Below are positions 5,377 to 55,158 of a DNA stretch of 64,000 nucleotides, piece after piece; positions within the stretch are counted from its first letter, which is position 1; each line of letters starts with the position of its first letter. The stretch is taken from contig WFMF01000441.1 of the NCBI GenBank assembly GCA_011033025.1, positions 87,433-151,432 on the forward strand, written 5' to 3'. The notes below the pieces were generated by a model that ran no database searches, had not been told where the DNA came from, and saw nothing but the letters and a program-made list of their open reading frames with translations. The translations under genes were made by a program, and so were the position numbers. The DNA is from Beroe forskalii. Taxonomy: Eukaryota; Ctenophora; Nuda; Beroida; Beroidae.

Positions 5377-8553
<3,177 letters not shown>

Positions 8554-31590: not shown

Positions 31591-34500
31591 CTAGAATTGG
31601 TTGGGGTTGGGGTAGGGGTTCATGTTGTGCATGTTGTAATCGATGGACTCCATGAGGAAGTCATCAGTGAAGTCGGCAGGTTGGTGTTGGAGGGGCGTGC
31701 AGGGGTTGGAATGTGAATCGTACTGCTCGAGTGGGTTGGGAACGTGGGCCTTGATCAGGTCCTTCTCGTAGCCGGGCACCTCCTCCTTGGACGCTTTGTA
31801 GTACTTCTGGAACTTGATCTGAGGGGGTGGTGTGAGGAGCGATACAGGGGGAAGGGACTATAGGTGGTGGGATATTGGAGAGAAAGCTTCTTAGAGACTG
31901 GGGAAGGTATGATATTATTGCAGCAAGGGCATTCCTCCGAATGAAGCGACAATTAAGTTGAAAGACTGTTACAAACTTGAAGGAAGTACCCTACTTGCCG
32001 TGGACGGGATTCTTTTGAATCCCGATCCACAATCTCAATATCTGAGTTACAACACTAATTTAGGAGACATTTGCTTGTGTTTGACTTACCTCTTTTGGAT
32101 GGTGAGGGTACAGGAACTTGAACACTGTCGGATCTAATATCCTCTCTGGGTTTGAATGGATTGTCAAGTTTAGAGAAAATAATGACAAGTAAATTTGAGA
32201 GGTTTGCGTTGTTTCATTGATCGAAAACTCGGACTGTGCTAAGCGGCTGAAAGGCCCATTTTATCGATGCTTATCATAATGCGAAGATGAGTGAAATAAG
32301 AGTGCAGGAACGTAGAACTTACGGGCCAGATCACACTTGTTGAGGTCTTTGGCACTGTAGATGAAGTGCTTCACTGTATCATCAGGCTGCTTGTACGATA
32401 TGGATATCATTCCTGAGGGGAGGGAGGGAGTCAGTTTCAAGGTTTACTGGAGAGGTTGCCAACTCAAAAACACGATTTGGAGAAGGAAACAAAAACTCGA
32501 TTGGGGGAGGAAATCAGGCCCGTAGTCAGGGGAGGCCGTGGGGGCTGCGGTCCCCCTCGGAAAAACAGGGATCTCCCAAAATTTTGCTCTAATTTTAAAG
32601 AATATCGTAATATCCGTGTTAGGATGATATTTTTCCCCTCCCTAACGCCTTTTGGTTTTACAAAAGGCATTGAGAAGGGTTGGCAGAGATCCTGATGTTG
32701 GATAGGTGAGAATTTGAGAAAAGGATATGTGTATAGTCACAATACAACGACTGTAATTTCTGGAAAGTGCCCGGAAAGTTGCGGGGCAGAAACCTTAAAA
32801 TTGTGAAATGTCTATCGGTTATTATTGCTTTGCATTTTGGAAAGGCCAATTTTGAAAATTGTCCCATGAAAAAAACATGAAATGATAGTTATTTTCAAAT
32901 ACCATCCCTCCCTTTGCGTGTTGAACTCTCCATTTATAGGATTGTGACTTTGTGATTCGACCTTTTATTTACAAATTACAGGGAATTAATAGAACTATAG
33001 AAGGGAAAGGTTCCTTGTTTTACATGACTCGTGACTTCTATCGGTAATAGAGGTTGTGAAAGAGATGTGACATTAAACACAAAGACTTCACACAATGGAA
33101 CCATTCACCATTCCCCTCAGAGCAGAGCGAGAGAATTAACAGCTAAAACATTGAGCTTACCATTGTGAATAGTAAGTTACCCTCGTACGCAACAGCTGCT
33201 GCAAACCTACCAACTCCGGCCAACTCAGCTGCTGCAACCCTCCTCAACAAAGCAGCAAGAATCACAATGGACCTGTCAATGCTACGAATCAGTGCGTAAA
33301 ACTCTGTATAATAGTTCGGTACTCATTTCTCAGTAATATTTTCAAGTATTGGTCGCCATGTTTCAGCTTAGGCTCGTGTTTGTGGGACTATTAGCGGCAG
33401 TAAGCAGTGGTGAAGTGCACGAAATCGACAGCGAGAGCTGGGACTATGAGGATTACCAGATTATCCGTGTTGCAAACACCAATGTCAATATCGAGGAGTT
33501 GATTGCAACAGACGACGTTGAAGTCATCGGACGAGGCCTGGAAGGGTCGTGGGACCTGATGGTACCACCAGAGTCGGATGCTGTCAACAAGATCAGACGA
33601 GCAGGCGCCAGAGTGGAACTCCTCCGAGGGGATATGGAGAGCCTTATGGACCAAGTGGACGCGCTCATGACGTGTGATAGGAGGGTTGAGAAACGAGGGG
33701 GCAGTTACACGATAGGCTTCGACTTTAGACGGTTCTTCAAGTGCTATCACACTGTAGAGGATCAGCACAAGTTCCTGAACGAATTGGTCAAAGCACACCC
33801 TGACCAAGCTGAAACATTCAGCATCGGAACCTCCTACCAGGGCCGAGACCTTCTGGCGATCAGGATAAGTGAGAACGTGGGCAGCTCGCACAATAAACCC
33901 ATGATCTGGCTTGATGCCAATATCCACGGGAGGGAGTGGATCTCCTCCACCACAGCCCTGTGGATTGCTGGAGCTCTGTTGGGGGAAGTGGACAACATCC
34001 AGAACAAAGCCACGCAGCTGCTGGAGCACTACCAGTTCGTGATCCTGCCCATGGCTAACCCAGACGGCTACACCTACTCCAGAGTCTCCCGTTTCACTCG
34101 CTTTTGGAGGAAGACCCGGAGTCACACCACCTGTAAGCTTCCTCCTTTCGGAGGCCTTTGTGAAATATTCAAGAACCAAAAGGGGTTCTGGTGCAGAGGA
34201 GTGGACCCCAACAGGAACTTCGATGCAGCGTGGGGGAAGGCCGGTACAAGCCATGACCCGTGTGCTGAGACCTACCCTGGGGATCACGCTTTCAGTGAGA
34301 AGAACACCGCAGCCATGCGTGCCTTCCTCCTGCAGAACAAGGAGAGAGTGAAGCTGTATCTCAGCTACCACTCCTACTCCCAACTCTTCCTCAAGCCCTT
34401 GGGATGGAGGTACACCACCCACCCTGACGCCTTCTACCACGACGAGGCTGGCAAGGAATACGTAGCAGCAGTGAAGGCTACCCATGGCTACGAGTATAAG

Positions 34501-37500
34501 AGTATCTCCAGCATCGAGCTGTACCCGAACAGTGGCGGGTCAGCTGATTGGGCTTATCTGCAGGGGATAAAGAACTCCTACACAGTAGAGCTGAGGGACA
34601 AGGGCAAGCACATGTTCTTCCTGCCAAAGAACCAGATCCAGCCGTGTGGAGAGGAGAACTTGAGGGGGTTGTTGGCAGTTCTTGATTCTTGCAATAGATT
34701 AGGGTGTTCTTAAGAGTAAACTTATTACGAAGTGAAACGCTGGTTGTGGACATCTAAAGGGTTTGTCACCCTCTACATTAACATATAGATGTACTCTGTC
34801 ACATGTCTTCTCAATAGAAGCAGGATATTACAAGCTGCCAAAATCAAGATTTAAATAAACTCTTATAACGGTATAAAAGCCATAATAAAAATTGTATCAT
34901 AAAACAAATTGTATCATTGTGTATAGAAAAACTATTGTGTATAGATAAACTATTAAATGTAAAACTACTTAAATTAACAAGTGAATCTATTAAATGTGGG
35001 AAGGTTATAATGAGAAAAAGTGATAAAGTGAAATTAGGGTAAATTAAAACTACATTAAATTCTGTACCTATCCAATTGAAGACATGGCAAGACAGAGGAG
35101 ATATTATCAAACACACAATCACTGAACAAACAAACAAAGTTTAGTAGTTTACTACCTACCGTCAATACAGCAGACAAATTGCCTGATTTTTGACTCGAAC
35201 TTTGATTTTTCGTCATTTCATTCGAAACTAAAAGCTCAACTTGCCATGATTCTGAACCATTGCAGCACATTTCTTAACTCCAGGCGATTGATACTTTGGA
35301 AATATAATATCCCGAATTTTCAGCTCCCGAAAGCAAGCTACCTAACTAATACCTTTTAACGTCTATTATGAAGAAATGAACACATCTTTTTATAATTATT
35401 TGCACTAAACTGTAAAGTTCATTCATCTTAAAGCACGAGTACCTTATTTATATCATAAACTTCCGTATTCCTTGGGAATACAACGAATCACCGTGAGGTG
35501 ACTAGTAAGAAAACATACTGTATTACTGTTGAAAAATAACTTGATTTTCGGAAGCTTCTGTTGAAATTACTCAATGAAAGGTTTGAACTTCTATCCCCTT
35601 ATAAATATTGTAAAATTCTCTTCTGTAAAATTTAAAAAATCAGCACACGTACAATTTTTCGTGATGCAAGAAGTATACTCTGACCCATACTCTCTTTCAC
35701 TGATCTGCCTTTTTTACAACTGTAACATGAACACGTGAGCGGAGTTAAGGGTAAGATAGGGTTTGCTGAGATTATCCCAGGGATGCATGTGCGTAGAACG
35801 GACAAAGGTTACACCGTACCCTTTGGAGCTACAGACCAAATACTCGACTACACCTTCCTCAGTGAGAGCACGGCAGCAACTGCCGCAAGCAAACAGGTTC
35901 TCATCCGAAGTGGGAATAATATCCGACATTCAGTTGCTGTTGAGATGTGAGTTTTTGGTGTGCACTCCGCGACCTCTAGCATTTGCAGAATAATCTATGA
36001 GGTGCATAGCGCAAGGTGATTGTGGGATGTCAGAGACTCTTTCTTCTCTGTGGAAAAGACGATTAAATACAACTGACTCCGCAGAAAATGCGTATAAATA
36101 CAGCCGACTTCCGACTCTTTCCTAACTATTTCGTTTACTTTAGAATAATGCCAGCCCTAAAGAAAAAAATTCCGGCATTTTTGAACCACATTATAAGCTC
36201 TCTCAAGATTTGTTAGTTAGAAGTAAATTCTCAGCTATTTTAAGAATGCTCTCGGCTGACGCTTTGAGAAATATTTTTGGTTCCTAAATTTTCAATAAAA
36301 AATAAGTTAACGAAAGTATAAGGCTATAAGAACAAATTATACCTGCGGTCTTGTTCATCCCAAGAATAATTGTTACAATAATTTAAGTCAATCTTTCTAC
36401 TCAAGTCAAATATTTCCCATATCGTTTTTATATAAATTTCTATCATTTTGCCACTTTTGGCAGTAGAAGAGCTAGAATTTGTTGCATATTCTTGCTTCCC
36501 ATGGCAACACGATGTGGAGTGATAACTACACTATCTACGGGATCCATGAAGCCTCGGACAGGTATCTTCTCATGGGCTACTTCTCCCTGATATCCCTCTC
36601 CTCCCTGATCGAAGACTCCCTCATCTTGGTGGGCTCCCTGCACTACAACGCCATAAAGCAAAACAAGGTCCTGGTGGTCTTCATCCAGTACCTGGCTGTG
36701 GCTAACTTCGTGATGAACTTCTCCAGCGTCATGCCCGGACTTGCTTCTTTGGCAGCTGATGGGTGGATCTTCGGGGACATCTTCTGCTACTTCAACTACA
36801 TCGCATACACCACGGGGTCTCAAGCCATAAACATCCTGACCGCCTCCCTGGCCCTCACGAAGTTGCTCATTGTCCAGTATCCGTTGAGAGCACCGAGCTT
36901 CACGAAAAGGTCTGCTCACTGGGCCACATTGGGCATTTGGCTGTACAGCTCCATCTTCCCACTGGCAGCAGTCCTCAAGGATAAACACGGCGTCTACTTC
37001 AGCTACCTGTACTACATCTGCAGCTACTCCTGCACCTTAGGCGAAGTCTGGACTCCACTCGGCAACGCCATCTACAGCATTACCGTAGGAGTGTCCATTT
37101 TCATCGGCACCTCAGTTACCATTGTCAGTAGCATTCTCCTCCTGATCATAGTAAAGAAACAGCGCACTGCTACTACAGCGCACTGCTACTACAACGAAGC
37201 AAAGAAAGCCAAGGGGAGGATAAAGTTAGAGGGGCTTTCCATGGTGCTGGCTACAGTAGCTATCCACATTCTGTTTTCCGCTCCCATAGGGCTTGCCTTC
37301 GTTGTGAACCTCTTTGCTGACAAGGAAGACAAGGAATTCTCAACGACCCACTTCAGCTATCTCTATAAAATGTACCGATGTGGAGTGTTCATTGCAGGCA
37401 TTGGAGGAATGGCTAATTTCTTCATCTACACCCTGACTCTCTCCAGCTTCAGAGAGTTCCTTAGAGCAACTGGCAGAAGGATGATAGCAGCAGTGAAGAA

Positions 37501-40500
37501 AAAGGAAGATGGAGCGAGGTCTGGTGCCAGGATGGTAAGGACAAGGAAACAGCTTCAAACCACCAAGATGACTTGAATTGAATAGCGGAAACTTCTTCTG
37601 CTATTGAGGATGATGCCACATGACTCCTCAAAATTTTTACGTTAAATTTAAGGACTGAAGACTGATTTATGAATTAATGTAATCCAAACCATTGGTGTAA
37701 CGACCCGCCGACGAAGGAGAACTGCAGGTGTCCAAAATGCTCGAGGGACAGCAAAATCTCGCAAAATTCTAAATCTGAAAGGGTCCTACAAAATGGTGCT
37801 GAATTCGAAGGGGGGGGGGTCGTTTTGTGTTTGGGGTTGTTGATGGGGGGTTGCATACTTAGAAGGATTTTACCCTACCCTCCGTCGCGCACACTTTTGT
37901 TCCTGCAACACGACCCTCCAAATTTCTGAATGTTCCGCGCTAGGGATGGGTGGAATCCATCTAGGGTCGCACTTGCACATCATAACGCATCTCCCCCTTC
38001 CCAGACATGAGACATTGGAAATTTATTTTCTTAACAGACAGAGTTTTTTTTTGCTGTTCTGTACCCATAATGATTACGCTTATAATGATCTAATCTTTAA
38101 ATGAGTGTTGAGTGAAATAATTGTATGTTATTTGAAGTTAGTAAAACTTTCATCTTTGTCAACTTTTTTTTATTAGTTTTACAGTGTAAAATGAATACAT
38201 GAATCAAAATTCCGTGAAAAATTTGTTAAAAAATTAATAGAAAAAAGAAAAATGGCTGGAGAATGCCAAAAATGAAGCTTAAATTAGCAAAATTCATTTT
38301 GTGCCACTTAATCCTTAATAAATCATATTTCACGCTCAAATCCACTGGCATTTGATCGAAGTAAAACTGAACCGAAGGAATTGACACCTATATCCTGGTT
38401 TTGGCTGGAGACGGGGGTTTCCGACTTATCACCGGACCATGTACCGAAGCTATTCAGCTAAACAAAAGTGTTGAAAGCTAGGGCGGGAATGAACTGGATT
38501 CTATGACAGTCCCAGTCCCCACCCAAATATTTCTTAACCCAGTAACCCACCTTGGGTGGAGTCTGGGAAGCGCAACCATTAATAACCCACCTTGGGTGGA
38601 GTCTGGGAAGCGCAACCATTAATAACCCACCTTGGGTGGAGTCTGGGAAGCGCAACCATTAATAACCCACCTTGGGTGGAGTCTGGGAAGCGCAACCATT
38701 AGTAACCCACCTTGGGTGGAGTCTGGGAAGCGCAACCATTAGTAACCACCTTGGGTGGAGTCTGGGAAGCGCAACCATTAGTAACCCACCTTGGGTGGAG
38801 TCTGGGAAGCGCAACCATTAATAACCCACCTTGGGTGGAGTCTGGGAAGCGCAACCATTAGTAACCCACCTTGGGTGGAGTCTGGGAAGCGCAACCATTA
38901 ATAACCCACCTTGGGTGGAGTCTGGGAAGCGCAACCATTAATAACCCACCTTGGGTGGAGTCTGGGAAGCGCAACCATTAATAACCCACCTTGGGTGGAG
39001 TCTGGGAAGCGCAACCATTAGTAACCCACCTTGGGTGGAGTCTGGGAAGCGCAACCATTAATAACCCACCTTGGGTGGAGTCTGGGAAGCGCAACCATTA
39101 ATAACCCACCTTGGGTGGAGTCTGGGAAGCGCAACAGGAAGGTGTGAGGTTCTGTGGTGGGGGCTCGGAGGAGCGCCTCTGTACGAGCTTTGGAGATGAA
39201 TCCCTGAAAATACCATCAGTTAACACGGGGTTTATTACAGCTCAATTTGTAATAGCATGACGCGGAGTCTAATGTATGTGTTAGTGCCCAGTAACCCTAA
39301 GACAAGTTGCCGCAACGGGGAGGGATATTGTCTGCATTGACCACATGGGAATACATGCCCCACCCCTAGGGAGGGGGCAGGCCCACCTAGTTTTCGGAAG
39401 GCCCCCTCGGGAAAAATCGTAGGGGGCTGCCAAGAGTTTTCTCAAAAATTTGAGCGTCAAATGTAAGTTAAAATTGACTTCAGTTAGACAGGTTTTCTTT
39501 GAAAATCAATGAAACATGATTTCATTTGTAGTTGTTTTGCAAGAACCCCACATTCCAACCTATGTTTTGCAAGAACCCCACATTCCAACCTATGTTTTAC
39601 AAATACTCCACATTCCAACCTCTATCAGGTTGTCCTTCCACATGGGTAAGAAGTGCTTCTTGATGAGGTCGATAGCACTGTACAACCACTCCCAAAACGT
39701 GAAGTTCCTGTCAGGTTTCTTCAGCGTGTCCTTAGCGAAGGCTTGCCACGATACTGCAATTAACTGGTGTTCAAATGAGAGGGAAATAATCGTTAGGAAT
39801 CAGATCATGGCTTCATTACATAAGACACATCAAATTTTCGCCCGCATTGAATATAGTCATTATCTCAAAAACCCGCTAATATCAGAAATTATCTACAAAA
39901 AACCCTTTGGTCCGTGTTTAGTGTTTACTCTACGAACAAAACCTGGCGAGCTGCCAATTTCTTTTTATACGTTAGTAATAGTATATGATTTATCGTACCG
40001 AGTTTCTTGTCAAGGTCCTCCGTGGTTTCTGTGTTGAGGACCTTCATGCCGAGGTAGGTGAGCGCTTCGTCGTTCAGCCATCTGTTGGTGTTCTTCATGA
40101 AGCAGTCGCTGATTCGCGTCTAGGAGCGAAGTGATTAGTTAAATGCCTAATTATAGAATCACTATTCAGAAAATCATCAGTAGTTCCATGATGAAAGTTT
40201 GAAAATCAACCAAATTTCATCAGAAGAATTGAGCCTTATTGCAGTAGGATAATGTGATAACTATCAATGTGTCAATTGTATGAGTGAACCCTGCATGTAT
40301 TGCAACTATTGTAGTTGCAGTTAACTTGACTCAGTTACCTTGAGTTCTCCCCAGGAGTGGGCCCCCGGGTGCGCGAAGGATTCTCTGTTCCGGGGAGCGA
40401 AGCTGTTGTCCCAGAAGATGGTAGCCTCGGCCGCGGGGGACTGACTGCCGTGCACGGTCACGGTCACGGGGAGGGAACACGCGTGAAGGGTCACGTGACT

Positions 40501-43500
40501 ATCGCTAAACGCGTGGGGCGGGTAGCTGCTCTTGTAGGGAAGGTTCACCTGGAGGAGAACACGTTATACTATCAGGGTAAAATGGGGTTTCCAAAATATC
40601 ACCCCTTGAAAGGGTTATATATCACTCATCAACCTTCCGTACCTTGGATTGTGAAGATTATAGATATCTGGAATACCCTTTAAAGCTTCTGTTAAGTGGC
40701 GCGCGCAATAACTTTGCGAAGGAGCAACCTCTCATTCACTCACATAACGCCGGCGACCTACCATGCACTGGAAGTAGACCCCGAACTTCTCCTCTGTAAC
40801 CAGCTCAGCAGCTCTCCTGTCTGATGCCCTGTGCAGCTTCCTACCATGTTGTCACTTACCATGTTGTCACCTACCATGTTGTCACCTACCATGTTGTCAC
40901 CTACCATGTTGTCACCTAGTACCTACCATGTTGTCACCTGCCATGTTGTCACCTGCCATGTTGTCACCTGCCATGTTGTCACCTGCCATGTTGTCACCTA
41001 CCATGCACTGGAAGTAGACCCCGAACTTCTCCTCTGTAACCAGCTCAGCAGCTCTCCTGTCTGCTGCCCGGTGCAGCTTCCTACCATGTTGTCACCTAGT
41101 ACCTACCATGTTGTCACTTACCATGTTGTCACCTACCATGTTGTCACCTACCATGATGTCACTTACCATGTTGTCACCTAGTACCTACCATGTTGTCACC
41201 TAGTACCTACCATGTTGTCACTTACCATGTTGTCACCTACCATGTTGTCACCTGCCATGTTGTCACCTACCATGTTGTCACTTACCATGTTGTCACCTAG
41301 TACCTACCATGTTGTCACCTAGTACCTACCATGTTGTCACTTACCATGTTGTCACCTACCATGTTGTCACCTACCATGCACTGGAAGTAGACCCCGAACT
41401 TCTCCTCTGTAACCAGCTCAGCAGCCCTCCTGTCTGCTGCCCGGTGCAGCTTCCTACCATGTTGTCACCTAGTACCTACCATGTTGTCACTTACCATGTT
41501 GTCACCTGCCATGTTGTCACTTACCATGTTGTCACCTACCATGTTGTCACCTGCCATGTTGTCACCTGCCATGTTGTCACCTGCCATGTTGTCACCTACC
41601 ATGTTGCCACCTAGTATCTACCATGTTGTCACCTACCATGTTGTCACTTACCATGTTGTCACCTACCATGTTGTCACTTACCATGTTGTCACCTAGTACC
41701 TACCATGTTGTCACCTATCATGTTGTCACTTACCATGTTGTCACCTACCATGTTGTCACTTACCATGTTGTCACCTAGTACCTACCATGTTGTCACCTAC
41801 CATGTTGTCACCTACCATGTTGTCACCTACCATGTTGTCACCTACCATGCACTGGAAGTAGACCCCGAACTTCTCCTCTGTAACCAGCTCAGCAGCTCTC
41901 CTATCTGCTGCCCGGTGCAGCTTCTTACCATGTTGTCACTTACCATGTTGTCACTTACCATGTTGTCACCTACCATGTTGTCACTTACCATGTTGTCACT
42001 TACCATGTTGTCACCTACCATGTTGTCACCTGCCATGTTGTCACCTACCATGTTGTCACCTGCCATGTTGTCACTTACCATGTTGTCACCTACCATGTTG
42101 TCACCTACCATGCACTGGAAGTAGACCCCGAACTTCTCCTCTGTAACCAGCTCAGCAGCTCTCCTATCTGCTGCCCGGTGCAGCTTCTTACCATGTTGTC
42201 ACCTGGTACCTTCCATGTTGTCACCTGCCATGTTGTCACATGCCATGTTGTCACTTACCATGTTGTCACTTACCATGTTGTCACTTACCATGTTGTCACC
42301 TACCATGTTGTCACCTGCCATGTTGTCACCTACCATGTTGTCACTTACCATGTTGTCACTTACCATGTTGTCACCTACCATGTTGTCACCTACCATGCAC
42401 TGGAAGTAGACCCCGAACTTCTCCTCTGTAACCAGCTCAGCAGCTCTCCTGTCTGCTGCCCGGTGCAGCTTCTTGAGGACCAGACCCTTGAACTGGAAGT
42501 GAACTGTCTTCGTCTGCGACGAGTACTCCATCACCTGAGATATAAGTGATATGTGAGGTTGGGTAATGACGTCATTATCATAGCTCAATGTGTTAAATTG
42601 ATGATGCCACACCATGAGATGAGAACTCCAAATATTCCTGTTGAAAAGGAGCATAGTGTGTGACTCCATTCAATTTCAATAAAAAAAATCTGTTTTTGAG
42701 GATGTGTTTTTGAGATTATTTTGACACTGACCTTGTCTCCGTTAAGGACCTCTCCGCAAGGCTGTATCTTGGGATCTTCCAAGATGCTGTGGTTAAGGAC
42801 TCTGAGCACTGACTGAGCCTGTTCGGCGTTTATCAGCACAACTTTTATCTGGGAAATGGGTATGTTTTAAGAGGATTCATACATCATGTCTGTGATAAAT
42901 TGGATCTCACCAGAAAAACAGAATTAATTTCACTATGATAGTGCGATGACCCAGACAGGACTTTTCAGGGCATTGTCATTATCACCGGCAGGCACGGTTG
43001 GGGGGTTCTCACAGTGATGGCATTTGCCCGGAGGTATCCAAGAATCAGTTATAAGCGATTTAAAGAATTCCAGAATTATACCCGACAATAGTAAACTCGG
43101 TGTACTTACGACTGGTTGCTTGATAGCGAAGCCCCACCTCTCCCCAGCAATGATCCTCACTGCAGCTGAGAAGCGTGTGTCTCTCTTCATCACCTGGTCA
43201 TAGAGTGTTAAAAACAAATCACAACAACGTGAAAAACAGTGCTAAACCATTAACGTTAAAACAACGTTATTAAAACAACATAATATTAGTAAGGGAATTA
43301 TTTGGATATGGACAAGGTTTCTGGGAAAAATTATTTTCAAAGGTTTGAGTGGATCTATCGACTCTGATAGGTGTCTAGAGCCAAAATAATGTCTTGTTGG
43401 AGAGGGCTTCAGGTAAATACCTGAGGTGGTTGCTTCTCGATGATGAAGCACTTGAGCATCATGGCTCGGATGATGCTGATGACCTCAGTGTGGAACTCCA

Positions 43501-46500
43501 GTACATGGGCACGTTGTTCTGCCATCTCGTCCAGGTGGTTCCGCCTGCAAGGGGGGAAGAATATCATGCATTTCTTATGTCATGCATTTGTGAGTTTATA
43601 TCATGCATTTGATGATATCATGCATTTGATAATATCTTGCATTTGATAACATGAAATGCCATCTCGTCCAGGGTGACGTCAGTTGAGAATACGCATTTAA
43701 TATTATGGATGTTTGATGTTATGCGTTTGACATTATTATTATAACATGGTATACATTTTTCTCACAGTCAAAGCCAACAAAATGTCAAACTCCTTCCAAC
43801 ATAAGTGAAAAACACGGACAAGATATTGGGGGTCTGACAACCTGACATTAACAATGACCCTCTGTAACTAAGGAAAATTCATAACATTCAGAACCCCTAA
43901 GATTGCTCATTTAGGGTGGGGGGAGGGGGCTAACTTACAATCTGGTGTAGTAGCCGGCACAATAAGGTCGCTAACTTAGGGGGGGGGGGGCTAACTTACA
44001 ATCTGGTGTAGTAGCCGGCACAATAAGATCGCTAACTTGGGGGGCTAACTTACAATCTGGTGTAGTAGCCGGCACAATAAGGTGGCTAACTTTGGGTGGG
44101 GGACTAACTTACAATCTGGTGTAGTAGCCGGCACAATAAGGTCGCTAACTGGGGGGGCTAACTTACAATCTGGTGTGGTAGCCGGCACAATAAGGTCGCT
44201 AACTTGGGGGGTACTTACAATCTGATGTAGTAGCCGGCACAATAAGGTCGCTAACTTGGGGGGGCTAACACAATCTGGTGTAGTAGCCAGCACAATAAGG
44301 TCGCTAACTTTGGGTGGGGGGGGGGGCTAACTCACAATCTGGTGTAGTAGCCAGCACAATAAGGTCCTTAACTTGGGGGGGCTAACTTACAATCTGGTGT
44401 AGTAGCCAGCACAATAAGGTCGCTAACTTGGGGGGCTAACACAATCTGGTGTAGTAGCCGGCACAATAAGGTCGCTAATTACTTGGGGGGCTAACTTACA
44501 ATCTAGTAGTAGCCGGCACAACAAGGTCGCTAACTTGGGGGGGCTAACTTACAATCTGGTGTAGTAGCCGGCACAATAAGGTCGCTAACTTGGGGGGGGG
44601 GGGCTAACTTACAATCTGGTGAAGTAGCCGGCGAAATAAGGTCGCTAACTTGGGGGGCTAACTTACAATCTGGTGTAGTAGCCGGCACAATAAGGTCACT
44701 AACTTGGGGGGGCTAACTTACAATCTGGTGTAGTAGCCGGCGCAGGACGTGAGAGCGTCCGCCAGATAACAAGCGTCCCTCTCTATAGAATCCAGGGGTT
44801 TCTGTCGCTTCCCACTAATCATGAACTTCCGCTGATCCTCCTTCCAATCGTCAATTTCCTGCGGAGTAGAACAGTAATTGATTAGACAAGGCAACTATAC
44901 GCCACGCGCGAGGAAAAGGCGGTTCAACGTCATCAATTCACTACATCATGATATGATAATGACGTCATCCTACCCGAATATTTCTTGTGCGCGGGGTTTA
45001 AATGTAGTCCGAGACGAAATGTCCATCCGTTAGCAACCCGTGTTAAAAGCGATTTCTCGACGGTTATTAGACCTTTAAACCATGCAGAATCGAACTAGCT
45101 CGGTCACGATATCTCATCTCGATGGCGACAAGTCGATATTGGCCACGCCCTTTTTGCGGTTATGCGCAGGCTTGATTTTTCATAACTTGGCTCAGGAAGG
45201 TCGTAGAGACTTCGTTTTGGGCGCAAACGAAGCGCAATGGCCATGTTTATATACGACTTGTTAATAAACATATGCCCTAAAATGATCAGAGAAAAAGTTA
45301 TGACCGAAAAACAGTTTTTAAGCCATACGCGAAGCAAATTTTCGGTAATTTTCGAAAAACCGTTAGTAACCTGTGTTTGAAGCGATCTATCGACGGTTGC
45401 TAGGCCTTTAGACCATGTAGAATCGAATTAGCTCGGTCACGACATCTGATCTAGATGGCGACAAGTCGATATTGACCACGCTTTTTTTCTTAAGGTTATG
45501 CGCAGGCTTGATATTTCATAACTTGGCTCGGGAAGGTCGTAGAGACCTCGTTTTGGGCGCAAACGAAGCGCAATGGCCATGTTTATATACGACTTGTTAA
45601 TAAACATATGCCCTAAAATGATCAGAGAAAAAGTTATGACCGAAAAACAGTTTTTAAGCCATACATGAAGCAAATTTTCGGCGATTTTCGAAAATCCGTT
45701 AGCAACCTGTGTTTTAAACGATTTATCGACGGTTGCTTTAGACAAGTGTTGATAAAGATATGCCCTAAAATGCTCAGGAAGAGAGACGTGGGCGAAAAAA
45801 TTATTTTTGGGCGCCCGTTGGACATATACTCTAGTAGCCAGCTGCATATGTGTATGCATTTCATTGCCCAGAATTTTTGACCATTCCAGGTTGTTCTTCA
45901 GGCAATTCTGGACCAGAATCATCTAGGTACATAAAATGTATCGCTATTCACATGCCTGTGGGGCCACGCCCATGCCATGCCCTTATGCGCGTATGAGTAA
46001 AATTCATATCTCGTTATCTCGGTCCAGGAAGGTCGTAGAGACTTCGTTTTTAGCTGAAACGAACCGCAATGGCCATGTTTATATTCGACTTGTTAATAAA
46101 CATATGCCCTAAAATGCTCAGAAAAAAAGTTATGGATGAAAAACTGATTTTTGGACCATACGCGAGCCATGTTTTTGATGATTTTTGTATCTCGGCTCAA
46201 GATGGTCGTACAGACTTTGTTTTTAGCTCAATAGAACCACAATGGCCTCGTTTATATTCAACAAAGTGAAACGTGGTTGACACCCACTAAAAACTCAGAT
46301 TAACATCAATGGTCTCTCTGTTCATGGGCTGATAAAATTAAGTTAGTAGAATAATCCATAACAAATATCACTAAATAATCAAAATAACAATAAATCAGCA
46401 ATTCACAAATTCAGAAAATAATAATAATATACAATTTGTCAATCGAAATATGCTCAAAAGTTCCCAGAAGTACAGTAATGGGCCAAAAACTGGTATTTCA

Positions 46501-49500
46501 ACCATGTGTGGGACATGTATCAAAGGATTTTTGTATGGATGTACCTGCTCAAAATTAGCTAAAGAGTATATGCGAAGACTTTGAATCATGTTTTTGTGCA
46601 TGCAATCAAAGCCCATTCTGCTCACGCTCCACAGTGTAACAATGTAAATTGCACAATCTTCCTTATTGACTTGTATATTTTTATCTATATACTACAGTAT
46701 GGAAGTGCTGAAATATGATTAGCAATCAACCGTGACCCAAAAGTTGGTAGGAAAACAGTAAAATGCAAAAAATAGAATAAACTAAAAGACATAAATATTA
46801 CCACGCCCCCAAGTAAGCCTATCACACTCCTAAGTAAGCCTATCACACCCCTAAGTTAGCCTATCACACTCCTAAGTTAGCCTATCACACTCCTAAGTTA
46901 GCCTATCAGACTCCTAAGTTAGGCTATGACACCCCTAAGTAAGCCTATCACAACCCTAAGTAAGCCTGTCACACCCCTTACTAAGCCTATCACTCTCCTA
47001 AGTAAGTCTATCACACTCCTAAGTTAGCATATCACACCCTAAGTAAGCCTATCACACCCCTAAGTAAGCCTATCACACCCCTCAGTAAGCCCATCACACC
47101 CCAAAGTAAGCCTATCACAACCCCTATTAATTGATTAAGTAAGTCTATCACACTTCTAACTAAGTCTATCACACCCCTAAGTTAGCCTATCACACCCATA
47201 AGTAAGCTCTCACACCCCTAAGTAAGCCTATCACACACCTAAATAAGCCTATCATACCCTTACGGAAGCTTATAACACTCCTCAGTTACCCTCTTAACCC
47301 GAAATGTATGGTCAATCCTAAGGGAAAGCATGGGGAATCCCTTAAATATAAGTGGTTTTGCTGAGGGATTCCTGGCTCTATTTTTAAGGGTAACCTTTTC
47401 TATTATAAAAGATTCCCTCATTTTTATTTTAGCAATTCCCAAAAAACACACTACGCTTTACTACACGTCTTCTTGACGCTCTACTTCGGTACTGCAAGCA
47501 TATTTACGATCTCGAGATGGCTTGTTCACACAAGCATTGGGGCCTTGGTGCCAAGAAACCATAATTTTGAGTTCAAACACCCTAAATTCTCCAGGAGTTG
47601 CCACCAGTTTCAAAGGAAAAGGTCATTTTTCAAGGGAAATCATTAACTTCTGCATATGGGCCATTAACTTTTAACTGCCCAGATATTCTCGATTTTGTTC
47701 CTAGAAGCTTTTAATCTCATCTCATGTAAGACCAAACTTTGACCATCATTCTGACCAGAGTCACCAAATTTGAAAGTGGAATATATGACTATTCTGTCCT
47801 GACCCTTGTCACTTGATTGACGTTTGGTCAGTCTATGGTAGTTTTGCAACCTTTGTGAGTCAAGAACAACCATTAATAAAACTGATTATGTATCAAAATG
47901 TGTAACTGAAATTTGTCACTGAGTGTACTGACGAATTGCTGATTATGGAAGCCATGTAGAAATTTATTTCTTTTGAACTATTAAAATAAGTAGTAACAAA
48001 GTTGAATTATGTCAATATTATTAGTTCTACAATACAGATTGCAGCTGAAAAATCTATTGAAGTCCCCAACTAATTCTAGCATCAAAACAGGTCAGTTTTA
48101 AAATTTTTGAATCTGTCAGGAATACTAACCTAAAAACGTATCCTTGTGGTGATTCAAATTAGATATATCCTTTGATACATGTCCCACGCATGGTTAAAAA
48201 ACCAGTTTTTGGCCCATTACTCTACTTCTGGGTATTTTTGAGCATATTTCGATTGACAAATTGTATATAAACGTGGCCATTGTGGTTCTATCGAGCTAAA
48301 ACAAAGTCTGTACGACCATCTTGGGCTGAGAAACAAAAAATCATCAAATACATGCTCGCATGTGGCCCAAAAATCAGTTTTTCGTCCATAACTTTTTTCT
48401 GAGCATTTTAGGGCATATGTTTATTGACAAGTCGAATATAAACATGGCCATTGCGGTTCGTTTGAGCTAAAAACGAAGTCTCTACGACCTTCCTGGACCG
48501 AGATATGAATTTCACTCATATGCGCATAAGGGCGTGGCATGGGCGAGCCAAGTTATGAAATATCAAGCCTGCGCATAACCTTAAGAAAAAGGGCGTGGTC
48601 AATATCGACTTGTCGCCATCTAGATCAGATGTCGTGACCGAGCTAATTCGATTCTACATGGTCTAAAGGCCTAGCAACCGTCGATAAATCGCTTCAAACA
48701 CAGGTTACTAACGGATTTTCGAAAATCACCGAAAATTTGCTTTGCGTATGGCTTAAAACTGTTTTTCGGTCATAACTTTTTCTCTGATCATTTTAGGGCA
48801 TATGTTTATTAACAAGTCGTATATAAACACGGTCATTGTGCTTCGTTTGCGCCCAAAACGATGTCTCTACGACCTTCCTGAGCCAAGTTATGAAAAATCA
48901 AGCCTGCGCATAACCTTAAGAAAAAGGGCGTGGTCAATATTGACTTGTCGCCATCTAGATCAGATGTCGTGACCGAGCTAATTCGATTCTACATGGTCTA
49001 AAGGCCTAGCAACCGTCGATAAATCGCTTCAAACACAGGTTACTAAAGGATTTTCGAAAATCACCGAAAATTTGCTTTGCGTATGGCTTAAAAAACTGTT
49101 TTCGGTCATAACTTTTCTCTGATCATTTTAGGGCATATGTTTATTAACAAGTCGTATATAAACACGGCCATTGCGCTTCGTTTGCGCCCAAAACGAAGTC
49201 TCTACGACCTTCCTGAGCCAAGTTATGAAAAAATCAAGCCTGCGTAACCTCAAAAAAAGGGCGTGGTCAATATCGACTTGTCGCCATCGAGATCAGATGT
49301 CGTGACCGAGCTAATTCGATTCTACATGGTCTAAAGGCCTAATAACCGTCGAGAAATCGCTTTTAACACGGGTTGCTAACGGATGGCATTTTTTGGACAT
49401 TTCGTCTTGGACTAATGGTCCGATGTCGCTGCATAGTTGGAACAGAGTTCCTAATCTAAATCTTGGCTATATAGTCACATTCGTCGTTATAACGATTGCA

Positions 49501-52141
49501 AAGCAGAAATCATGAAATTAGACAATACTCGAACAGTGAATTATTAGAAAGCCTTTCAATCTATTAACTAGGCATCTGTATCGTATAGAGGTCCATTAGA
49601 AAGTATCGAAAGGTTATTACTAACGGTTGATATTGACTGGTGGGATGTTTTAAGCTGGGTCAGTGTCTGTTCCAGGAGGGTAAGAAGGTGGACCATAATG
49701 TCGTTTATTTGCTGGTGTATCGTGTGTAACGTCCTCATACACCGGTCTCTCATGTGGTTCATCTGAGAGGGGGGGGGGAGGTTATTAGGGGTTATTAGGG
49801 GTTATTACTTAATAAAGGGTTATGAGCGGTTATTACTGATTAGGGGTTATAAGGGCTGTGAGCAGGAGGCAAGTGAGCGGTTACATGTCGAAGTGGTGAC
49901 CGTATACCGCAACATGGTCGAGGCGAAGCTGAGACTGTGTAATTTGGACAATGGACAAGGTGTGCCGAATTAATTATATCGAAGTTTACATAGTACATTC
50001 AGTTGCAAATCTTAGGGGTATATGCGCGCAGCATATACTCTATTGATACAGTCTCAATGATCTTAGCTTTTCTTTTCACTCACATTGTTCTGATCGACTT
50101 CGGAGAGTTGGTTCATCCGCTGTTGGTAATGTGCCGTTTTCCTCTGCAACTCTTCCTGAGTTACTCGCTTCATGTCACTCTTCTCATCCAGGGAGTCTAT
50201 GCTCTCGTCAATCCTGAGCACAGAGGTCAATATTAAACGCCGCGCACAAGAAATAGGCGGTTCAACGTCATCAACACACTACATTGAGCTATGATAATGA
50301 CGTCATCCTGCCCGCCTATTTCTCGTGCGCGGCGCATAAAAGCAAAAAACCATTAAATAATTAATTTAGTTAAAATCATGATAGTGTAAGGAAAGTTTCA
50401 ACTTTCAAGCCAAGGCCGCGGGAGGTGTAAAGGTTAAATAAAGAAGGACGAACTCTTCGGAAACTCAATTATCGATAATCATTAATCAAATCGCAGATTT
50501 TGATAGTTAAAGGGTGTTTATTTACAATTATTGATTATTGAACTAATAACCGACCCCCCAAGTACCCATACCTGGCGTTGAGATCCTTGACCTTCCTGAA
50601 GCTGAGTGAGAAGAGAGAGCTCTGCAGGTCAGCCATCATGGAGGCGTCGCCCCCATTATCCAAACCATCCACAATCGGTTTCATATCCGCCGTTTCTGTA
50701 GCCATCAGGATCTTGTTTTCCTGGGAATCAGAGAAAGAGATTATGCAGGGAAGAAAAGGTAAAACTGCTGCTAAGTGAGCCAACCAAAAGCAATCAAATT
50801 TTAGCGCGCAGATGATCAGCGAAATAAGCTGATCTCGGGATTCTATAGTTTTATTTGCTATAAAAACCTCACTGAGCCAAGAGAGAATGAGATAGGAGAG
50901 AAGGACTCAGTGGGAAGTAACTATATACTCACTTCTTGAAGAATGTGCTGCATGTTCGCGACGAAGTCGTGGGGTTTGTTGGTGAAGTTCTTGAAGAGGT
51001 TATTGTACTGCTCTTCCAGCCGTTTGGAGGTGTCCATGATCTTCTCCATGTCGCCGCTGTTACGGAAGTCCTCTATCTTCCACTTTAGCGTCATCATGAA
51101 GTTCTGCGGGAGGGAAGTATATATTTATACGCCGCACTTGAGAAATAGGCGGTTAGGATGACGTCATTATCATATCATGATGTAGTGAATTGATGACGTT
51201 GAACCGCCTTTTTTCTCGTACGGAGCTTTCAAAGCCATGATCGTTCTGAAGTGAAAAAGCAAGATAAAACTGTGAGACGAAAATAAGCTCAAACTTCAAT
51301 ATAGCGACAATCAATCTCCATTCTCCAGCATTAAATCACAGGTGTCGCGAGATCACCCGGAAATTTTTAAGTCGCGCGGTGCCCTGTACGTACGTGATAC
51401 ACTGCCACATCAATATCATGTACGTAGAAATGGCAGTCGTGTGGAAATTCCAGAAAGCGTATCGGTACTCAGAACCCTTATGGTAATCTAAGACATCAAC
51501 GTGACAATTTTCCTGGAATCCACTACAAGTAACTCACGTTGAACTCCTGGCGTATCTCGTGCTCGTGTGCCGGGTCCTCCACGTTGTAGCGCGTCCATGG
51601 CCGGGACTCTATGTACTCCGAGAGGTTGTGACGTACCTTAAAGGGAGGGGTTGGTTTAGTGGAGGGGGGGGGAGAATTGGGAGGGGGAGAAAGAGGGGGC
51701 CTAAGTTGGGGGTATTTGGGGGAGGGACTCTATGTACTCCGAGAGGTTGTGACGTACCTACAGGGGAGGGAGGTGGTTAAGTGGGGGAATGTGGGGGAAG
51801 GGGGCCTGAGTTGGGGGGGGGGTAGTGGGGGGAGGGACTTCATGTACTCAGAGAGGTTGTGGAAAAATTGAGGAATGGATTTAAAGTGGGCATTTTAGGC
51901 AGGGAAGCTAAAGGAGAGGGCTTTAGTTGGGGGAACGGGGAGGGGGGATTGTAAACGAATTTGTTTAAATTTTGCTTGTCTTTGCCAAGATTCAGAATTC
52001 CTACAAAATCCCACAGAATAATTGTCCTGCAAGGTAGTTATAGTATTCACTCACCAGGCCGGATATTCCCACAGTATTCCTACTGTAAAGCTCCTGCACT
52101 AAGCTAACATTACACGATGACAAGCGTTGCCATAGTGCCAT
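31591..52141 (-). CDS. STAT: STAT transcription factor, complete (18 exons, 769 aa)
   Basis: Exons (-): 52055-52141, 51538-51636, 50933-51103, 50572-50720, 50084-50213, 49625-49762, 44722-44858, 43421-43544, 43110-43193, 42732-42848, 42394-42534, 40339-40548, 39999-40119, 39620-39753, 39110-39203, 32323-32412, 32090-32145, 31591-31818. All 17 introns are GT-AG and phases agree. The N-terminal domain (RHNLSEYIESRPW), coiled coil and DNA-binding region (FIIEKQPPQVMKRDTRFSAA, ELVTEEKFGVYFQ, VTVTVHGSQ, IFWDNSFAPRN) precede the linker (NFTFWEWLYSAIDLIKKHF). In the SH2 domain (GFISKARTEALL, TFLLRFPDST), Arg639 should bind phosphotyrosine; Tyr711 (VPGYEKDLIK) is the likely activating tyrosine. Closest in style to STAT5/6-type proteins. 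JAK-activated STATs dimerise and enter the nucleus to regulate transcription. Intron 15 splits SH2 and hosts two antisense genes; several donors lie in tandem arrays. Confidence 0.93.
33358..34713 (+). CDS. Secreted M14 metallocarboxypeptidase, A-like
   Basis: Single-exon gene of 451 residues. ATG 33358 is chosen because it precedes a signal peptide (MFQLRLVFVGLLAAVSSG). Next come a propeptide (YEDYQIIRVANTN to about residue 100) and the catalytic domain. Zinc ligands are His190 and Glu193 (NIHGREW) and His338 (SYHSYSQ). The substrate-binding region DPNRNFDAAWG and catalytic Glu411 (YTVELRDKG) are present, as is the down-Tyr (ELYPNSGG). The position equivalent to CPA residue 255 is Ala (GGSADW), unlike the Asp of B-type enzymes, which suggests cleavage of hydrophobic C-terminal residues. 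It is probably a digestive or extracellular zymogen. It lies antisense inside STAT intron 15. The intronless structure may reflect a retrocopy or lineage-wide intron loss in this family. A poly(A) signal follows at 34854. Confidence 0.95.
   Translation: MFQLRLVFVGLLAAVSSGEVHEIDSESWDYEDYQIIRVANTNVNIEELIATDDVEVIGRGLEGSWDLMVPPESDAVNKIRRAGARVELLRGDMESLMDQVDALMTCDRRVEKRGGSYTIGFDFRRFFKCYHTVEDQHKFLNELVKAHPDQAETFSIGTSYQGRDLLAIRISENVGSSHNKPMIWLDANIHGREWISSTTALWIAGALLGEVDNIQNKATQLLEHYQFVILPMANPDGYTYSRVSRFTRFWRKTRSHTTCKLPPFGGLCEIFKNQKGFWCRGVDPNRNFDAAWGKAGTSHDPCAETYPGDHAFSEKNTAAMRAFLLQNKERVKLYLSYHSYSQLFLKPLGWRYTTHPDAFYHDEAGKEYVAAVKATHGYEYKSISSIELYPNSGGSADWAYLQGIKNSYTVELRDKGKHMFFLPKNQIQPCGEENLRGLLAVLDSCNRLGCS
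34854..34859 (+). promoter_or_regulatory. Poly(A) signal AATAAA of the carboxypeptidase gene
   Basis: A consensus hexamer about 140 bases after the stop codon, on the gene's strand. Confidence 0.6.
34860..36511. other. AT-rich spacer inside STAT intron 15
   Basis: Between the two nested genes. A 71-codon open frame at 35735-35950 (+) (including GFAEIIPGMHVRRTDKGYTV) has no recognised domain and no ATG start. Nothing else is seen. Confidence 0.5.
36512..37576 (+). CDS. Class A-like 7TM receptor, intact, single exon
   Basis: 354 residues from ATG 36512; upstream in-frame codons lack ATG. Seven hydrophobic segments. TM2-TM3 read LAVANFVMNF and GWIFGDIFCYFNYI, giving the Trp-x-Phe-Gly of extracellular loop 1 and the TM3 Cys of class A receptors. 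The DRY position is replaced (SLALTKLLIVQYPL keeps only the trailing YPL), and NPxxY is replaced by NFFIY. The third intracellular loop carries a near-perfect repeat ATTAHCYY from a 16-base DNA duplication. The C-tail is basic (MIAAVKKKEDGARSGARMVR). The gene is antisense inside STAT intron 15 and is the full-length relative of the fragment at 1-400. The ligand is unknown; loss of DRY may mean altered G-protein coupling. Confidence 0.85.
   Translation: MWSDNYTIYGIHEASDRYLLMGYFSLISLSSLIEDSLILVGSLHYNAIKQNKVLVVFIQYLAVANFVMNFSSVMPGLASLAADGWIFGDIFCYFNYIAYTTGSQAINILTASLALTKLLIVQYPLRAPSFTKRSAHWATLGIWLYSSIFPLAAVLKDKHGVYFSYLYYICSYSCTLGEVWTPLGNAIYSITVGVSIFIGTSVTIVSSILLLIIVKKQRTATTAHCYYNEAKKAKGRIKLEGLSMVLATVAIHILFSAPIGLAFVVNLFADKEDKEFSTTHFSYLYKMYRCGVFIAGIGGMANFFIYTLTLSSFREFLRATGRRMIAAVKKKEDGARSGARMVRTRKQLQTTKMT
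37135..38313 (+). repeat. Segmental duplication, copy 2
   Basis: Same-orientation partner of bases 1-1142. The duplicated unit extends past the receptor stop through the 3'UTR and about 730 bases of flank, so it arose as a DNA-level duplication and not by retroposition of mRNA. The AATAAA seen in copy 1 is altered here (aaattaat). Confidence 0.9.
38540..39134 (-). repeat. 40-bp minisatellite carrying the exon 15 donor, about 15 copies
   Basis: Each unit, read on the gene strand, is ttgcgcttcccagactccac then ccaag|gtgggttattaatgg: 25 bases of the exon 15 end (coding LRFPDSTQ) plus the 5' splice site and 15 intron bases. About 15 head-to-tail copies with only a few t/c variants and one 1-base deletion run from the true exon end into intron 15. 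Confidence 0.95.
39526..39622 (-). repeat. 28-bp tandem repeat at the exon 14 donor, about 3 copies
   Basis: On the gene strand, the donor gttggaatgtgg and the following bases recur as cataggttggaatgtggggt units (about 28 bases) immediately inside intron 14; the first copy is the functional donor after ATAGAG. Confidence 0.8.
40763..42475 (-). repeat. Higher-order array: exon 11 3' half plus 15-16-bp donor repeats
   Basis: On the gene strand, the simple unit gtaggtgacaacatg (variants gtaag, gcagg, and gtaggtacta inserts) repeats dozens of times. It begins exactly at the exon 11 donor TGCATG|GTAGGT, so each unit recreates ATG|GTAGGT. Embedded are six copies of an 80-base segment of exon 11 (LHRAADRRAAELVTEEKFGV through QCM) with its donor, at about 42394, 42106, 41848, 41376, 41003 and 40763. 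Only the first has the complete upstream exon. Confidence 0.95.
43930..44740 (-). repeat. About 53-bp minisatellite carrying the exon 7 donor, about 15 copies
   Basis: On the gene strand each unit carries tgccggctactacaccagatt, the end of exon 7 (AGYYTRL), then gtaagttagcc, a C-tract of variable length, and aagttagcgaccttattg. About 15 units lie between exon 7 and exon 8. The inverted STAT copy has a single unit at this place. Confidence 0.95.
44903..44994. mobile_element. CRE-bearing MITE family, copy 1
   Basis: An approximately 90-105-base palindromic element with ends cgcc(g/a)cgcgc(a/g)(c/a)gagaaa and a core containing tgacgtca and atcatatcatgat. It lies just beside the insertion site of the 4.4-kb element. 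Confidence 0.8.
45005..49414. mobile_element. 4.4-kb palindromic transposable element in STAT intron 6
   Basis: Ends are inverted: tagtccgagacgaaatgtcc at the left and ggacatttcgtcttggacta at the right, flanked on both sides by ATG (45002-45004, 49415-49417) as a 3-bp target-site duplication. Arms of about 1.2-1.5 kb (45005-46540, 48165-49414) are inverted copies, and each arm has internal tandem units with acttgttaataaacatatgc and gtcgtagagacttcgtttt. The core (46800-47270) is a tandem array of cctatcacacccctaagtaa-type 23-mers. No transposase motif is recognised, so it is non-autonomous. The inverted STAT copy shows the empty site at 55049-55051. Confidence 0.85.
46796..47275. repeat. About 23-bp tandem array inside the palindromic element
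   Basis: About 20 imperfect units of cctaagtaagcctatcacac, with gttagcc and actcct variants. Non-coding. Confidence 0.9.
50236..50340. mobile_element. CRE-bearing MITE family, copy 2
   Basis: Nearly complete copy with both ends (cgccgcgcacaagaaatagg; cctatttctcgtgcgcggcg) and the core tgacgtcat, in STAT intron 4. Confidence 0.85.
51130..51229. mobile_element. CRE-bearing MITE family, copy 3
   Basis: In STAT intron 2. It has the core gatgacgtcattatcatatc and a degraded right end (ttctcgtacggagc). Confidence 0.8.
51600..51870 (-). repeat. G-rich tandem repeat with partial copies of STAT exon 2
   Basis: Beyond the true exon 2 start (51636) lie two further copies of its first about 30 bases (gtacgtcacaacctctcgga and a diverged one), near 51727-51760 and 51840-51870, separated by purine-rich ggggga tracts on the + strand. 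The units therefore span the acceptor side of exon 2. Confidence 0.8.
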
Positions 52142-53380: not shown

Positions 53381-54060
53381 AACAGCGGCGACATGGAGAA
53401 GATCATGGACACCTCCAACGGTTGGAAGAGCAGTACAATAACTCTTCAAGAACTTCACCACCAACACGACTTCGTCGCGAACATGCAGCACATTCTTCAA
53501 GAAGTGAGTATAGTTACCTCACTGAGTCCTCCTATCTATCTCATTCTCTCTTGGCTCAGTGAGGTTTTTATAGCAAATAAAACTATAGAACCCGAGATCA
53601 GCTTATTTCGCTGATCATCTGCGCGCTAAATTTGATTGCTTTTTGGGTGGCTCACTTAGCAGCAGTTTTACCTTTTCTTCCTGCATAATCTCTTCTCTGA
53701 TTGCCAGGAAAACAAGATCCTGATGGCTACAGAGAAACGGCGGATGAAACCGATTGTGGATGGTTTGATAACGGCGACGCCATGATGGCTGACCTGCAGA
53801 GCTCTTCTTCACTCAGCTTCAGGAAGGTCAAGGACCTCAACGCCAGGTATGGGGACTTGGGGGTCATTAGTCAATAATCAATAATTGTAAATAAACACCC
53901 TTTAACTATCAAAATCTGCGAGTTGATTATCGATAATTGAGTTTCCGAAGAGTCCGTCCTTCTTTATTTAACCTTTACACTTCCTGCGGCCTTGGCTTGA
54001 AACTTTCCTTACACTATCATGATTTTAACTAAATTAATTATTTAATGGTTTTTTGCTTTT

Positions 54061-54153
54061 ATGCGCCGCGCACGAGAAATAGGCGGGCAGGATGACGTCA
54101 TTATCATAACTCAATGTAGTGTGTTGATGACGTTGAACCGCCTATTTCTCTTT
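54061..54153. mobile_element. CRE-bearing MITE family, copy 4
   Basis: The counterpart of copy 2 in the inverted STAT copy, between exons 4 and 5. The right end has lost the cgcgg part. Confidence 0.8.
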
Positions 54154-54762
54154 TTTTTATAATATTGACCTCTGTGCTCAGGATTGACGAGAGCATAGAC
54201 TCCCTGGATGAGAAGAGTGACATGAAGCGAGTAACTCAGGAAGAGTTGCAGAGGAAAACTGCACATTACCAACAGAGGATGAACCAACTCTCCGAAGTCG
54301 ATCAGAACAATGTGAGTGAAAACAAAGCTAAGATCATTGACACTGTATATGCTGCGCACAGGGACTCACAGGGACCCCTAAGATTTGCAACTGAATGTAC
54401 TATGTAAACTTCGATATAATGAACTCGGCACGCCTTGTCCATTGTCCAAATTACACAGTCTCAGCTTCGCTTCGACCATGTAAGTTGCGGTATACGGTCA
54501 CCACTTCGACATGTAACCGCTCACTTGCCTCCTGTTCACAGCCCTTATAACCCCTAATCAGTAATAACCGCTCATAACCCCTTATTAAGTAATAACCCCT
54601 AATAACCTCTAATAACCCCTAATAACCCCTCCCCTCTCCCTCTCAGATGAACCACATGAGAGACCGGTGTATGAGGACGTTACACACGATACACCAGCAA
54701 ATAAACGACATTATGGTCCACCTTCTTACTCTCCTGGAACAGACACTGACCCAGCTTAAAAC

Positions 54763-54866
54763 ATCCCACCAGTCAATATCAACCGTTAGTAATAACCCTC
54801 CACCAGTCAATATCAACCGTTAGTAATAACCCTCCACCAGTCAATATCAACCGTTAGTAATAACCT
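54763..54866 (+). repeat. 36-bp tandem repeat at the exon 6 donor of the STAT copy, 3 copies
   Basis: Unit ccaccagtcaatatcaacc|gttagtaataaccct: 19 bases of exon 6 end plus donor and intron start, three times. The intact STAT gene has one unit here (about 49611-49643). Confidence 0.92.
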
Positions 54867-55055
54867 TTCGATACTTTCTAATGGACCTCTATACGATACA
54901 GATGCCTCGTTAATAGTTTGAAAGGCTTTCTAATAATTCACTGTTCGAGTATTGTCTAATTTCATGATTTCTGCTTTGCAATTGTTGTGACTATATAGCC
55001 AAGATTTAGATTTAGCAACTCTATTCCAACTATGCAGCGACATCGGACCATCTAA

Positions 55056-55158
55056 AACCCGCGCACAAGAAATAGGTGGGTAGGATGACGTCATTATCAT
55101 ATCATGATGTAGTAAATTGATGACGTTGAACCGCCTTTTTCTCGCGCGCGGCGTATAG
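55056..55158. mobile_element. CRE-bearing MITE family, copy 5
   Basis: The counterpart of copy 1 in the inverted STAT copy, beside the empty site of the 4.4-kb element. Related core fragments lie at 42557-42600 and 56685-56735. Confidence 0.8.

What the first reader, a model, noticed from the sequence alone, without database searches (positions are those of the whole stretch)
38540..44740. Tandem arrays repeatedly amplify 5' splice sites within one gene
Seen directly: in STAT the donors of exons 7, 11, 14 and 15 each lie in a tandem array whose unit contains the exon's last bases plus its own GT donor (about 15, dozens, about 3 and about 15 units). The inverted copy adds exon 6 (3 units), and exon 2 has acceptor-side partial copies. 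Minisatellites at four of 17 donors, each in register with the junction, are unlikely by chance. Possible explanations are replication slippage or break repair seeded at exon-intron junctions, R-loop-linked instability, or an active process that copies splice junctions. Inference: such arrays would offer many competing donors and could tune STAT splicing.
Basis: partly seen in the sequence, partly recalled or inferred. Interest (0 to 1): 0.92.

Follow-up and report, generated by a model that had tools for sequence, protein, structure and literature searches.

The report
Minisatellites spanning STAT splice sites
In a comb jelly's STAT gene, four exon ends with their splice signals are really repeated many times in a row, but checks in other genes of the same animal suggest this is what a genome full of short tandem repeats does by chance at either end of an intron, not a process that targets splice sites.

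Summary
A complete 18-exon STAT gene of a ctenophore lies on the minus strand. The donors of exons 7, 11, 14 and 15 sit in tandem arrays of 55-, 15-, 30- and 40-bp units that carry the exon's last bases and the GT. An inverted partial copy (exons 3-11) has about 3 units at donor 6, a single copy at donor 7 where the gene has about 15, and its own array at donor 11. The 55-bp unit was found only at this locus.

A donor-directed process is not supported. In sampled myosin and kinase genes, arrays span 1 of 101 donors and 3 of 89 acceptors, no more than intronic control windows (2.3% and 5.4%) or neutral expectation (1.2-1.9%). Acceptors elsewhere are hit too: STAT exon 2, a WARS-like gene in this window, a transporter-like gene. 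STAT is an outlier (4 of 17 against 1 of 101, p = 0.0014), but it was picked after the fact.

Best reading: ordinary minisatellite birth in a repeat-rich genome. A duplication spanning a junction leaves the exon-proximal site intact and is tolerated. Use of the extra donors is untested. The human IFI6 minisatellite is the closest known case.

The parts
31591..52141 (-). complete STAT gene, 18 exons (exon 1 from 52141, exon 18 ends about 31591)
   Evidence: tblastn of P0001 and splice model (ends of exons 16-18 corrected and not re-translated)
43925..44741 (-). array at exon 7 donor: 55-bp unit, about 15 copies, exon end ..CCAGATT|GTAAGT
   Evidence: found only at this locus
40756..42397 (-). 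array at exon 11 donor: 15-bp unit (ATG|GTAGGTGACAAC) mixed with 22-bp and 83-bp units; contains partial exon 11 copies
39533..39621 (-). array at exon 14 donor: 30-bp unit, 3 copies
38543..39135 (-). array at exon 15 donor: 40-bp unit, 15 copies, ..CCACCCAAG|GTGGGT
51604..51757 (-). two-copy acceptor-side duplication at exon 2, copies 121 bp apart
53381..58578 (+). inverted partial copy of STAT exons 3-11, with frame breaks in exons 3 and 4
54766..54865 (+). array at exon 6 donor in the inverted copy: 34-bp unit, 2.9 copies, 100% matches; single copy in the gene
55322..55345 (+). exon 7 donor in the inverted copy: single copy
56896..58555 (+). array at exon 11 donor in the inverted copy
6675..6758 (-). 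acceptor-spanning array in a WARS-like gene: 41-bp unit, 2 identical copies with CAG|GACCCCTATTTCCGGATG

Best explanation
These are minisatellites born in place in a ctenophore genome that is rich in short tandem repeats. Now and then a duplication of about 15-55 bp spans an exon-intron junction and later expands. Such an array is tolerated because the site next to the exon stays intact: the first donor on the 5' side, the last acceptor on the 3' side; the further copies behave as intron. Shown here: the arrays at four STAT donors; origin in place of the 55-bp unit; copy numbers that differ between the gene and its inverted copy at exons 6 and 7; other genes with arrays across acceptors as well as donors, at background rate. 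Inferred: selection removes arrays that reach further into exons; the birth step is slippage or end joining with short filler (2-20 bases not in the single-copy sequence are seen by eye at the unit joins of exons 6, 7, 11 and 15); the first donor is the one mostly used.
For: Other genes: 1 of 101 donors and 3 of 89 acceptors spanned; with junction score of 1 or more, 1 of 71 and 3 of 68. Intronic control windows: 34 of 1458 and 68 of 1261. Neutral expectation from array density times unit length: 1.2-1.9%. Array density in the window equals that of 13 spaced 10-kb stretches (0.62 per kb at TRF score 50). 55-bp unit only at this locus. Acceptor arrays noticed outside the sample: WARS-like gene, L008, STAT exon 2. 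In P0001 no unit is inserted at the matching joins. Another ctenophore, Hormiphora, has 13% of its genome called as repeats by TRF (PMC8527503, passages).
Against: STAT departs from the sample: 4 of 17 donors against 1 of 101, p = 0.0014; strict copy test 3 of 17, p = 0.009. Within STAT, donors reach 3 of 17 against 4.3% of intronic windows once the four arrays are left out, p = 0.03. STAT hits are 4 donors to 1 acceptor. Arrays within 30 bp of a junction were 12 of 190, about three times what density gives. The GTAAGT pattern count exceeds its backward control.
Confidence: 0.76

Rival explanations
1. A process specific to 5' splice sites (slippage, break repair or R-loops seeded at exon-intron junctions) amplifies donors across the genome.
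For: Five different STAT donors (6, 7, 11, 14, 15) carry arrays in the gene or its copy; GTAAGT triples 1.38 times the backward control.
Against: 1 of 101 donors and 3 of 89 acceptors in myosin and kinase genes; intronic controls as high or higher; acceptor arrays elsewhere.
Confidence: 0.05
2. STAT lies in a locally unstable stretch or is a hypermutable gene, so arrays are born there more often, at junctions among other places.
For: 4 of 17 donors, excess over other genes; inverted duplication beside the gene and independent changes in it; 16.9% of STAT intronic windows have a near copy.
Against: Number of arrays per kb in the window is that of the other sampled stretches; the gene was chosen because it looked striking.
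Confidence: 0.15
3. The donor arrays are kept because competing donors tune STAT splicing.
For: Most units keep a donor hexamer: exon 15 14 of 15 GTGGGT; exon 7 11 GTAAGT and 1 GTGAGT of 14 counted; exon 11 37 GTAGGT and 22 GTAAGT of 80. The exon 11 units can be read in frame for about 12 steps before a stop.
Against: Distal use would shift the frame at exons 7 and 15 and meet a stop at exon 14; the single-copy donor persists in the inverted copy; the relative P0001 shows no inserted units; units also stay alike simply by being young.
Confidence: 0.06
4. Assembly artefact: arrays or the inverted copy were made or inflated in assembly.
For: No raw reads could be examined; copy numbers of long arrays may be inexact.
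Against: Units differ from one another, flanks are clean, and two- to three-unit junction arrays occur at unrelated loci.
Confidence: 0.03

Closest known systems
Human IFI6 (6-16, G1P3) minisatellite with multiple splice donors, Turri, Cuin and Porter 1995 (not held; seen as a citing passage in PMC4526556, and in reference lists)
   Same: A short-unit array at an exon-intron junction whose units carry donor sites; the citing passage says two downstream repeat units are used as donors.
   Different: One exon there, with transcript evidence; here four donors of one gene and no transcript evidence of distal use.
Rainbow trout irak3, exon-start repeats upstream of exon 5 (PMC6763605, passages)
   Same: The first 15-17 nt of an exon repeated four times directly upstream of it, as in L008, L039 and L020 here.
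   Different: Acceptor side only in that passage.
Intron gain by tandem genomic duplication, potato RdRp gene (PMC4974935, search listing and start of abstract)
   Same: A tandem duplication that involves splice-site sequence.
   Different: There a new intron is gained; in STAT the introns are old and only their ends are amplified.
Tandem-repeat-rich ctenophore genome of Hormiphora californensis (PMC8527503, passages)
   Same: 13% of the genome called by TRF; many nested intronic genes, as with the GPCR-like ORF in STAT intron 15.
   Different: The passages seen do not speak of arrays at splice sites.
C. elegans intronic minisatellite CeRep25B near alternative splicing (PMC4039745, passages)
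   Same: Minisatellites in introns linked to splicing.
   Different: The passages do not describe units that contain the splice site.

Membership tests
Splice-donor minisatellite (IFI6 type) | Array spans the exon-intron junction | tested here: met
   Exons 7, 11, 14, 15 of STAT
Splice-donor minisatellite (IFI6 type) | Units carry a donor sequence | tested here: met
   Hexamer counts
Splice-donor minisatellite (IFI6 type) | Downstream units are used as donors in mRNA | not testable with these tools
   No RNA of this species; P0001 comes from a relative and shows no inserted units
Intron gain by tandem duplication | A new intron is spliced out of the duplicated stretch | tested here: not met
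   P0001 aligns across the joins of exons 6-16 with no extra or missing coding units; each array lies at an existing intron end
Introner or other dispersed element | Near-identical copies at many places in the genome | tested here: not met
   55-bp unit found only at this locus; the 15-, 30-, 34- and 40-bp units were not searched

The most novel reading that the evidence does not exclude
STAT in this ctenophore is under a gene-specific process or selection that keeps gaining donor arrays, so that ladders of competing 5' splice sites, with in-frame VGDNM extensions at exon 11, set the output of STAT isoforms.
Probability: 0.07. Interest if true: 0.75.

Novelty: new member of a known kind. Interest (0 to 1): 0.36.

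Why it matters
It offers natural arrays of 3 to about 60 competing donors beside coding exons, with close single-copy controls (exon 7: about 15 in the gene, 1 in its inverted copy; exon 6: 1 and about 3). That makes a ready test of how splicing chooses among identical donors. It also gives a first measure of how often tandem duplication in a repeat-rich genome reaches splice junctions, on both sides of introns.

Tried and rejected
Donor-specific seeding: rejected as the main reading on the myosin and kinase sample. Dispersed element as source: rejected for the 55-bp unit. Source of the exon 7 filler GACCTTATTGT: no other place in the window at 0-1 mismatch but one single-mismatch site at 59737. 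Enlarging the sample with the kinesin family (PF00225) and a stricter AGGTRAGT count: asked several times, never answered; PF12774 asked once and PF00118 asked twice, not answered. Some of the 101 donor calls are false because the domain simply runs on in one frame; one search printed the 30 donor calls scoring under 1, hence the stricter counts. No RNA, no second genome and no raw reads were available. Of 8 papers cited or looked into, none was read whole: passages or listings only.

Full report
What it is. The window is 64 kb of a 216-Mb assembly in 1134 contigs. The closest STAT proteins are an unnamed transcript product (P0001, 90% identity) and proteins of the ctenophores Mnemiopsis (67%) and Bolinopsis (64% over 61% of the query), so the animal is a ctenophore; the species is not settled. 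tblastn of P0001 lays out one complete STAT gene on the minus strand from 52141 to about 31591, and an inverted partial copy of exons 3-11 on the plus strand at 53381-58578. The splice model has 18 exons; exons 1-15 translate without a stop, and the joins of exons 6/7, 7/8, 11/12, 14/15 and 15/16 match P0001. The ends of exons 16-18 were one to three bases off and were corrected without a new translation. The STAT-binding family was found at two places in the genome, both in this window. An ORF on the plus strand at 36476-37573, GPCR-like by eye, sits inside intron 15.

The arrays. Donor 7: about 15 copies of a 55-bp unit. Donor 11: 80 steps, mostly 15 and 22 bp, with partial exon 11 copies inside. 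Donor 14: 3 copies of 30 bp. Donor 15: 15 copies of 40 bp. The inverted copy has 2.9 identical 34-bp units at donor 6, where the gene has one, and one copy at donor 7, where the gene has about 15. A DNA search of the genome found the 55-bp unit only at this locus; the other units were not searched. Outside the exon 11 array, three blastn blocks between gene and copy are 91-94% identical, and the block that includes the array 85%. So the exon 6 and exon 7 arrays changed in one copy only. By eye, the unit joins hold bases absent from the single-copy sequence: 20 at exon 7, about 6 at exon 11, about 4 at exon 15, 2 at exon 6. That fits slippage or end joining with filler, but the step is inferred.

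Is it more than chance? Any array that spans a junction must hold the exon end plus GT, so register is no evidence; frequency is the question. As an outside sample I took exon hits of the myosin head and interrupted protein-kinase hits, fetched in 66 stretches and chosen by hit position, not by arrays. Of 78 myosin hits 63 went into the junction call and of 135 kinase hits 44. Of the 15 myosin hits left out, 7 lay outside the fetched stretches or held stops there as well, and the rest held one or more stops; some hits with one stop were kept. Kinase hits left out were whole-domain hits, hits with stops, or partial hits that I did not fetch. Junctions were called by reading frame and splice score: 107 exons, 101 donors, 89 acceptors. 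TRF flagged one donor (L019) and two acceptors (L018, L020) as spanned; reading L039 showed a third acceptor; a 22-nt copy test found the same four. With a junction score of 1 or more the counts are 1 of 71 and 3 of 68. The same copy test on intronic windows, low-complexity windows not counted as hits, gives 34 of 1458 in the donor direction and 68 of 1261 in the acceptor direction. Array density times unit length gives 1.2-1.9% per junction (TRF score 40). There is thus no sign of attraction to donors; the 95% upper limit for the sampled donors is 5.4%. Against this stands that arrays within 30 bp of a junction, not spanning it, were 12 of 190 as flagged (11 once L039 is moved), where density alone would give about 2%; I have no firm reason for that.

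A whole-genome pattern count of three GTAAGT with gaps of 6-36 bp gave 6662 matches against 4836 for the pattern read backwards. Matches overlap, and in the 100 or so places listed a few large arrays dominate. GTAAGT was rarer than its reverse in 130 kb of sample (51 to 88), so the relative excess could be about 2.4-fold.

Acceptors. In this window a WARS-like gene has TTAACAATCCCTCCCCTTCCAG|GACCCCTATTTCCGGATGA twice in tandem, identical. L008, one of 13 stretches taken at fixed offsets, has a 46-bp unit with AG and first exon bases, about 8.5 copies. STAT exon 2 has a two-copy acceptor-side duplication. These three were seen by eye and are not in the sample counts.

STAT as outlier. 4 of 17 donors against 1 of 101 gives p = 0.0014, or 0.0045 with the stricter junctions; the strict copy test, 3 of 17, gives p = 0.009. 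At a 2% rate, 4 of 17 has p = 3e-4. With all STAT introns counted, 16.9% of intronic windows have a near copy and 3 of 17 donors do not exceed that (p = 0.57); with the four arrays left out the background is 4.3% and p = 0.03. The gene was picked because it looked striking, so these values cannot be taken at face value. Array number per kb in the window equals that of the 13 stretches (0.62 at score 50). Regional instability remains possible.

Effect on splicing. Not shown. Use of a distal copy would shift the frame at exons 7 and 15, meet a stop at exon 14, and at exon 11 add VGDNM-like repeats in frame for about 12 steps before a stop. P0001, from another species, has no added units.

Known relatives. 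Human IFI6 has a minisatellite that gives several donors (citing passage; reference lists; the paper itself is not held). Trout irak3 has exon-start copies upstream of an acceptor (passages). Hormiphora has 13% repeats by TRF (passages). In six full-text searches no listed title or abstract start described splice-site arrays in a ctenophore; that is all I can say on priority.

Noticed in passing
window 5697-8302, minus strand (WARS-like gene): Three introns look non-canonical or recently formed: GATCAG|GACCCC..CCTTCCAG|GACCCC has the same 14 nt at both ends and no GT; the first intron ACTAA|ATGAGTG..TTGCAG|ATGG lacks GT; the last long one fits the frame only as GT..AA and repeats the exon end. 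A DNA search of one part found a single copy in the genome.
   Followed up: partly
L008 2996-3541: Acceptor-side array, 46-bp unit, about 8.5 copies, plus a partial exon copy before the real exon of a transporter-like gene.
   Followed up: partly
window 2-397 and 36476-37573: Two GPCR-like ORFs that look nearly identical by eye, one of them inside STAT intron 15.
   Followed up: no
window 45027-45737 and 48545-49384: Two inverted blocks of 335-336-bp tandem units, 95-97% complementary, inside STAT intron 6.
   Followed up: no
G000:C1:1948049-1949194: Array of units AAGGTAAGTACAGTCAGCACTTACATGATC, carrying GTAAGT on both strands.
   Followed up: no
myosin and kinase loci L016-L081: Arrays lying within 30 bp of a junction without spanning it are about three times as common as density predicts, 12 of 190 as flagged.
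   Followed up: no
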